From the NCBI GenBank assembly GCA_019186945.1, contig JABAQJ010000008.1:1-64000 (forward strand): a stretch of DNA of 64,000 nucleotides, in the 5' to 3' direction. The translations under genes and the position numbers were made by a program. Below, piece after piece: positions 4,475-5,188 of the stretch. The notes beneath the pieces are model-generated. The model was not told the DNA's origin and searched no databases. It saw nothing but the letters and a program-made list of their open reading frames with translations. The stretch comes from Gemmatimonadaceae bacterium. Its GTDB lineage: Bacteria > Gemmatimonadota > Gemmatimonadetes > Gemmatimonadales > Gemmatimonadaceae. Position 1 is the first letter of the stretch; every line of letters begins with the position of its first letter.

Positions 4475-5188
4475 CTACGGACGTCTGAAGTGTCCCTCTC
4501 GGTACTTCGAGAAGTAATAAAGGGCGGAGCGTTCAGCGATATCGATCATCGCCGTCGCCATTTCCTCAACCGACCACTTGTTCTCACGGAAAAAGAAACT
4601 GCCTCTGTTGAACTTCCCTTGTTCTTCGTTGTACAGATGCGTCGTGTTCAGCTTGCCGAACATCGCCATCGTCGAGACACGGTCCAGGATCGACGAACCT
4701 TCCTCGAAGTCGCAGCCGTATCCGAAGCAGATGAAGGGGAAAATGCTTTCGCGCATCAGGGCAGTTCTGAGGCCGATCAGGTTCTTTCCCAACGGCTCAA
4801 TCGCATTGCCTTTCGCTTGCTTCGGAAGTGCTTCGCTCGCACGGAGGTCGTTCGTACCCTGGTTCTTGACCTCGGCGATGAGAATCGGATAGCTGAGCTT
4901 GTCCGCCGGCGGCCCCTGCATGTACAAAATGCCGCCATCGGGTCTGATTGAGCTCCTATCGAAGTGGTAGTGAAAGTCCATATTCGGGTACGTGCCGCGC
5001 AATTCAGCGACGATATCCCGAAGGAGCCATTGCTTCTGGTGTACCAGACTGACGTTCGCCCCAAATCTCGACGCAAGGTGATCGACAACCCGACGCAGGG
5101 CCTTGGTGACGTCGGACTCCTGGCCTCTTGAAGTGACGTTGATGACAGTTCCAGCTCGTTGATGCCGAAGCTGGTGCTTGCGAGCCAT
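4475..5188 (-). CDS. Type II restriction endonuclease, EcoRI family
   Basis: This 237-residue protein matches EcoRI over its core from memory of the family. SSIRPDGGI (79-87) corresponds to EcoRI SSIKPDGGI, and LIAEVKNQG (103-111) to LVAEAKHQG. Asp84, Glu106 and Lys108 therefore fit the PD...ExK metal site (EcoRI D91, E111, K113). The recognition segment is GNAIEPLGKN (127-136) against EcoRI GNAIERSHKN. Asn128 and Ala129 are kept, but the position of EcoRI Arg145, which contacts adenine, is Pro132. It would cleave unmethylated DNA at a short palindrome, probably AATT-centred, but the sequence cut cannot be read from this. It follows the methylase by 6 bases. The cassette is AT-richer than its surroundings (the line at 4561 is 27 G+C of 60). 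Confidence 0.92.
   Translation of the reverse strand: MARKHQLRHQRAGTVINVTSRGQESDVTKALRRVVDHLASRFGANVSLVHQKQWLLRDIVAELRGTYPNMDFHYHFDRSSIRPDGGILYMQGPPADKLSYPILIAEVKNQGTNDLRASEALPKQAKGNAIEPLGKNLIGLRTALMRESIFPFICFGYGCDFEEGSSILDRVSTMAMFGKLNTTHLYNEEQGKFNRGSFFFRENKWSVEEMATAMIDIAERSALYYFSKYREGHFRRP

What the first reader, a model, noticed from the sequence alone, without database searches (positions are those of the whole stretch)
4475..5188. EcoRI-family nuclease with Arg145 equivalent replaced by Pro
The nuclease keeps the EcoRI catalytic triad (D84, E106, K108) and Asn-Ala of the recognition segment. However, GNAIER, in which EcoRI Arg145 contacts an adenine, reads GNAIEP here. Known EcoRI-like enzymes such as MunI are described as keeping that Arg. 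A Pro at this point should change the contacts to the central bases, so the enzyme may read a new or relaxed site. The alternative is an inactive nuclease.
Basis: partly seen in the sequence, partly recalled or inferred. Interest (0 to 1): 0.75.

Follow-up and report, generated by a model that had tools for sequence, protein, structure and literature searches.

The report
EcoRI-like nuclease missing a DNA-contact arginine
A bacterium carries a horizontally acquired EcoRI-type restriction-modification pair whose cutting enzyme has lost one arginine that every relative found keeps, so it is most likely a recently disabled nuclease beside a healthy protective methylase, not an enzyme that cuts a new DNA site.

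Summary
The minus-strand gene 4475-5188 encodes a full-length 237-aa EcoRI-family nuclease with D84/E106/K108 and GNAIE-P, where Pro132 (codon CCG, 4793-4795) aligns with EcoRI Arg145. The Pro is unique: all 81 relatives in the core alignment (47-77% identical), about 60 listed viral-contig hits (overlapping, partly redundant), EcoRI and MunI keep Arg. No Arg or Lys private to this protein replaces it. A second invariant residue is also changed (G120A; Gly in 81/81). Thirteen of the 14 closest relatives have no change at any invariant column, nor has the upstream D12 adenine methyltransferase. Published EcoRI work reports that changing base-contact residues, including R145K, cuts activity but not specificity. 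I therefore read this as loss or near-loss of cleavage in an acquired R-M pair, at an early stage of decay. Two relatives with other changed key residues (L042 R170P, L088 D84G) also have broken frames, and interrupted frames are commoner in R than in M. New or relaxed specificity is not excluded but has no positive support. Site avoidance in the host was uninformative. No cleavage or methylome data exist, and an assembly error cannot be ruled out.

The parts
4475..5188 (-). EcoRI-family type II restriction endonuclease gene (R), 237 aa, full length
   Evidence: ORF; Pfam EcoRI 7.9e-9; EcoRI is the only strong solved-structure match, VIA Z 21.9, rmsd 2.6 over 209 residues
4793..4795 (-). codon CCG = Pro132 in place of the Arg equivalent to EcoRI Arg145
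   Evidence: Arg in 81/81 core relatives; also Arg in EcoRI and MunI
4829..4831 (-). codon GCA = Ala120, second private change at an invariant column (Gly in 81/81)
4865..4873 (-). codons of catalytic Glu106 (4871-4873) and Lys108 (4865-4867), equivalents of EcoRI E111 and K113
   Evidence: E 81/81, K 81/81
4937..4939 (-). codon of catalytic Asp84, equivalent of EcoRI D91
4796..4810 (-). codons of Gly127-Asn128-Ala129-Ile130-Glu131 (recognition segment, kept)
5195..6352 (-). D12-class N6-adenine DNA methyltransferase gene (M), 385 aa, directly upstream of R with a gap of 6 bases
   Evidence: Pfam MethyltransfD12 3.6e-14; PADLOC MTase_II 9.5e-103; no deviation at 57 columns invariant in relatives

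Best explanation
This is a horizontally acquired type II restriction-modification pair of the EcoRI family (D12 adenine methylase M followed by EcoRI-like nuclease R). Its nuclease has very probably lost most or all cutting activity through Arg132Pro, perhaps helped by Gly120Ala, while the methylase remains intact. In EcoRI the equivalent Arg145 bonds to N7 of both adenines of the AATT core and is part of the network that couples recognition to cleavage. Proline has no donor group. The protein should still fold and keep its catalytic residues but should not form the activated complex on its site. Shown here: the sequence change, its uniqueness, the fold match, the intact methylase and the foreign composition. 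Inferred: loss of activity, and that it is recent in the lineage.
For: Arg is kept in 81/81 core relatives and in all viral-contig relatives read. Window R has 2 of its 5 private residues at columns invariant in all others, against 0 of 20 in the 13 other close relatives apart from L019 (Fisher p 0.033) and 3 of 335 in all other full-length members (p 0.0017); these tests ignore phylogeny. M has 0 deviations at 57 invariant columns. Literature: R145K lowers activity but not specificity (PMC11755562); base-contact mutants lose activity, not specificity (PMC4081073); Arg145 bonds to A2 and A3 (PMC3806743). L042 (R170P) and L088 (D84G), relatives with other key-residue changes, also have broken R frames, and R frames are interrupted more often than M frames. 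GC is 55-59% in the R-M segment against 62-66% around it, and no other R homologue was found in 295 genomes of the class.
Against: The R frame is intact and full length, with a terminal branch of ordinary length (rank 35 of 64), so decay would have to be recent. The catalytic residues, N128, A129, E131 and R170 are all kept. A proline at the start of the recognition helix may be sterically acceptable. No activity data exist, and the R145P substitution itself was not found in the literature held.
Confidence: 0.75

Rival explanations
1. The Pro132 enzyme is active with the family's usual specificity but slower, because recognition is redundant and one lost contact is tolerated.
For: Recognition by EcoRI is described as redundant (PMC4081073). 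All other EcoRI-equivalent recognition residues that the subfamily conserves are kept in the window protein. The fold is preserved in the model.
Against: Even the conservative R145K lowers activity, and Pro has no donor at all. The complete conservation of Arg says that slower enzymes are not normally kept.
Confidence: 0.12
2. Specificity change: Pro132 (with Ala120) gives a new or relaxed recognition site, possibly matched by the methyltransferase.
For: The change sits at a base-contact residue. The closest R in the tree, L019, also has a changed recognition segment (GNVIER), although support for that pairing is weak at 0.547.
Against: No residue gained elsewhere could make new contacts: the five private residues are four Ala and one Pro. 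EcoRI contact mutants do not change specificity. The methyltransferase has no unusual residue at conserved columns. Genome sampling shows no clearly avoided palindrome pointing to a new site.
Confidence: 0.06
3. The Pro codon is an assembly or sequencing error and the real gene has Arg.
For: Codon 132 (CCG) is one G-to-C change from the Arg codon CGG, and codon 120 (GCA) one G-to-C change from the Gly codon GGA, 36 bases apart. The reads are not available.
Against: The genome assembly is good (20 contigs, completeness 100, contamination 1.79). The frame is intact, and two separate base changes would be needed.
Confidence: 0.07

Closest known systems
EcoRI (R.EcoRI, PDB 1ckq/1eri) and RsrI
   Same: Same fold (Z 21.7 to 1eri, 209 residues), same catalytic triad, same GNAIE segment, Q115, I197 and R200 equivalents
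   Different: About 25% identity; Arg145 is Pro; partner methylase is D12 class rather than the EcoRI-methylase family; lacks two EcoRI insertions; H114, K117 and M137 equivalents are N, T and Q. RsrI was not compared here.
Uncharacterised EcoRI-like subfamily with D12 methylase (e.g. Paracoccus marcusii pCP157_17, WP_217847105)
   Same: 47-77% identical R; M directly upstream of R in most loci; same GTNDLR and GNA[IV]E..GKN motifs
   Different: All 81 aligned members keep Arg132 and Gly120
MunI (C^AATTG, PDB 1d02)
   Same: GNAxER-type motif and PD-(D/E)XK core; fold match Z 7.1, 151 residues
   Different: Keeps Arg (GNAHER); no sequence-profile match at E up to 10
EcoRI R145K mutant (PDB 1qrh)
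   Same: Substitution at the same residue
   Different: Laboratory mutant, Lys not Pro; reported to lose activity without a change in specificity (PMC11755562)

Membership tests
EcoRI-family type II restriction endonuclease (PF02963) | Match to the family profile above the curated cut-off | tested here: met
   35.4 bits against 22
EcoRI-family type II restriction endonuclease (PF02963) | PD...(D/E)XK catalytic residues D91, E111, K113 | tested here: met
   D84, E106, K108
EcoRI-family type II restriction endonuclease (PF02963) | EcoRI fold | tested here: met
   AlphaFold2 pLDDT 86.7; VIA Z 21.6-21.9 to four EcoRI-DNA complexes
EcoRI-family type II restriction endonuclease (PF02963) | GNAxER recognition segment including Arg145 | tested here: not met
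   GNAIEP; Arg in 81/81 relatives. This lowers the claim of an active enzyme with EcoRI-like recognition, not the common descent.
EcoRI-family type II restriction endonuclease (PF02963) | Adjacent adenine methyltransferase | tested here: met
   D12 MTase at 5195-6352
EcoRI-family type II restriction endonuclease (PF02963) | Sequence-specific DNA cleavage at an AATT-containing site | not testable with these tools
   No biochemical or methylome data
D12-class N6-adenine DNA methyltransferase | Profile match and DPPY motif IV with FxGxG motif I | tested here: met
   PF02086 3.6e-14; DPPYNQHPYG and FSGSG in the translation

The most novel reading that the evidence does not exclude
The Pro132/Ala120 nuclease is active and reads an altered AATT-related site, with its methyltransferase matched to it: a natural case of specificity change at the Arg145 position, which the EcoRI mutagenesis reviewed here did not achieve.
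Probability: 0.05. Interest if true: 0.65.

Novelty: new member of a known kind. Interest (0 to 1): 0.25.

Why it matters
If the reading is right, the gene is a natural counterpart of the classical EcoRI R145 mutants: an R-M pair in which the nuclease is switched off by one residue while the methylase stays intact, the state expected on the way to an orphan methylase. The comparison also shows a large EcoRI-like subfamily with a D12 methylase, spread over many phyla, for which I found no characterised member; it would be useful for studying EcoRI-type recognition.

Tried and rejected
Relatives with Pro: searched in viral contigs (3 scans), genome contigs (1 scan), plasmids and phages by protein, and genomes of the same phylum, class and relatives; none found. 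A compensating nearby Arg or Lys: the private residues are A95, A120, P132, A213, A222 only; R141 is conserved across the family alongside R132, so it is not a replacement. General acceleration of R: rejected, its terminal branch is ordinary and both R and M are somewhat long. A clade with altered recognition (window with L019): support only 0.547, identity 73%, and the changes are at different residues. Avoidance of AATT-core sites in 344 kb of the host: CAATTG 18 against 33.8 (z -2.7), GAATTC 26 against 38.0 (z -1.9), not outstanding among 64 palindromes (CTCGAG and GAGCTC -3.5), so specificity could not be inferred. AlphaFold2 models of the window (Pro) and L012 (Arg) proteins differ in where the recognition helix starts (133 against 128), but without DNA this is weak and not used as proof. 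The 1986 R145 paper and the MunI structure paper are not held.

Full report
What is there. On the minus strand, 4475-5188 encodes a 237-aa protein that matches Pfam EcoRI above its cut-off (7.9e-9). Directly upstream, with a gap of 6 bases, lies a 385-aa D12-class adenine methyltransferase (5195-6352; PADLOC MTase_II 9.5e-103). This M-then-R arrangement is the usual one in relatives, including a Paracoccus plasmid annotated as 'DNA adenine methylase' and 'EcoRI family type II restriction endonuclease'. The pair has lower GC (55-59%) than its surroundings (62-66%). No other nuclease homologue was found in 295 genomes of the same class, so it was probably acquired horizontally. The flanking genes (a phosphotriesterase-family and an S15-peptidase-family protein) have no evident link.

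The residue. Aligned with EcoRI, D84, E106 and K108 match D91, E111 and K113, and GNAIEP matches GNAIER, so Pro132 sits at Arg145. The alignment is firm: the family profile hits EcoRI at 5e-59, and the R145K mutant 1qrh shows its Lys in that same column. Codon 132 is CCG, one base from the Arg codon CGG.

How unusual. The search patterns did not include position 132, so they are not biased for Arg. In a core alignment of 82 sequences, Arg is present in all 81 relatives. Some 60 listed viral-contig hits from two overlapping scans, many of them the same locus or near-identical, all read GNA[IV]ER. Among 14 relatives at 70% identity or more, 13 have no change at any invariant column; the exception is L019 (A129V, G139C). 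Of the window's five private residues, two fall at invariant columns, against 3 of 335 in all other full-length members apart from L019 (Fisher p 0.0017). The test ignores phylogeny and was made after seeing the change, so it is a guide only. The methyltransferase shows no deviation at 57 invariant columns.

What it most likely does. In EcoRI, Arg145 bonds to N7 of both adenines (PMC3806743), and Ala142, Asn141 and Arg145 act together on the kinked AATT core (PMC4081073 section 20). The review states that mutating base-contact residues greatly reduces activity but does not change specificity. A 2024 paper summarises R145K in the same way and cites a 1986 paper whose title says that Glu111, Glu144 and Arg145 are essential (PMC11755562). 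That 1986 paper itself is not held. Proline cannot donate a hydrogen bond, and no Arg or Lys private to this protein has appeared elsewhere. The inference is a folded nuclease that no longer cuts well, protected by a methylase that still looks functional. Other members show the same fate: L042 (R170P, the EcoRI R200 equivalent) and L088 (D84G) also have interrupted frames, and R frames are interrupted in roughly eight loci against about two for M, judged by short best matches away from contig edges. Most of these are metagenome assemblies, so some frameshifts may be artefacts.

Structure. The AlphaFold2 model of the window protein (pLDDT 86.7) matches EcoRI-DNA complexes with Z near 21.8, rmsd 2.6 over 209 residues, so the fold is that of EcoRI. 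Pro132 lies at the start of the recognition helix, where a proline can be accommodated (general knowledge of helices). In the model of the Arg-bearing relative L012 the helix begins at 128 instead of 133. These models have no DNA and were not used to decide activity.

Specificity. The subfamily keeps the equivalents of EcoRI Q115, G140, N141, A142, E144, I197 and R200 but has N, T and Q for H114, K117 and M137. An AATT core is therefore likely, and the outer base pair is open. Palindrome counts in 344 kb of the host were not decisive. Neither the original site nor a changed one can be stated from sequence.

Verdict. Observation confirmed. The interpretation of a new or relaxed site is unlikely (about 0.06). 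Inactivation or severe weakening is most likely (0.75). A slower enzyme with the same specificity (0.12) and an assembly error (0.07) remain open. The finding is a new, probably defective, member of a known kind.

Noticed in passing
L010, L011, L015, L016, L022, L029, L075, L076: The same EcoRI-like nuclease family (49-77% identical R) is paired in these loci with a methyltransferase only 33-37% identical to the window's, whereas in most loci it is 44-71% identical: nucleases of one family with exchanged methylases.
   Followed up: partly
L019:4001-4708: The R gene of an Omnitrophota assembly has GNVIER (A129V at the EcoRI Ala142 position) and G139C, the only other close relative with changes at invariant columns.
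   Followed up: partly
L091-L109 and L139-L179: Viral contigs carry distant EcoRI-like proteins (27-38% identical), mostly reading GNAIERAxKN; in L091-L109 no neighbouring homologue of the window methylase was found.
   Followed up: no
L004:2304-4098: A viral contig with topoisomerase-like genes carries a 48% identical nuclease and its methylase in convergent orientation, unlike the tandem order elsewhere.
   Followed up: no
window 16673-19106: Two further phosphotriesterase-family relatives of the gene at 3231-4373 lie in the window (about 50% identical); the match at 18018-19106 contains an internal TAG.
   Followed up: no
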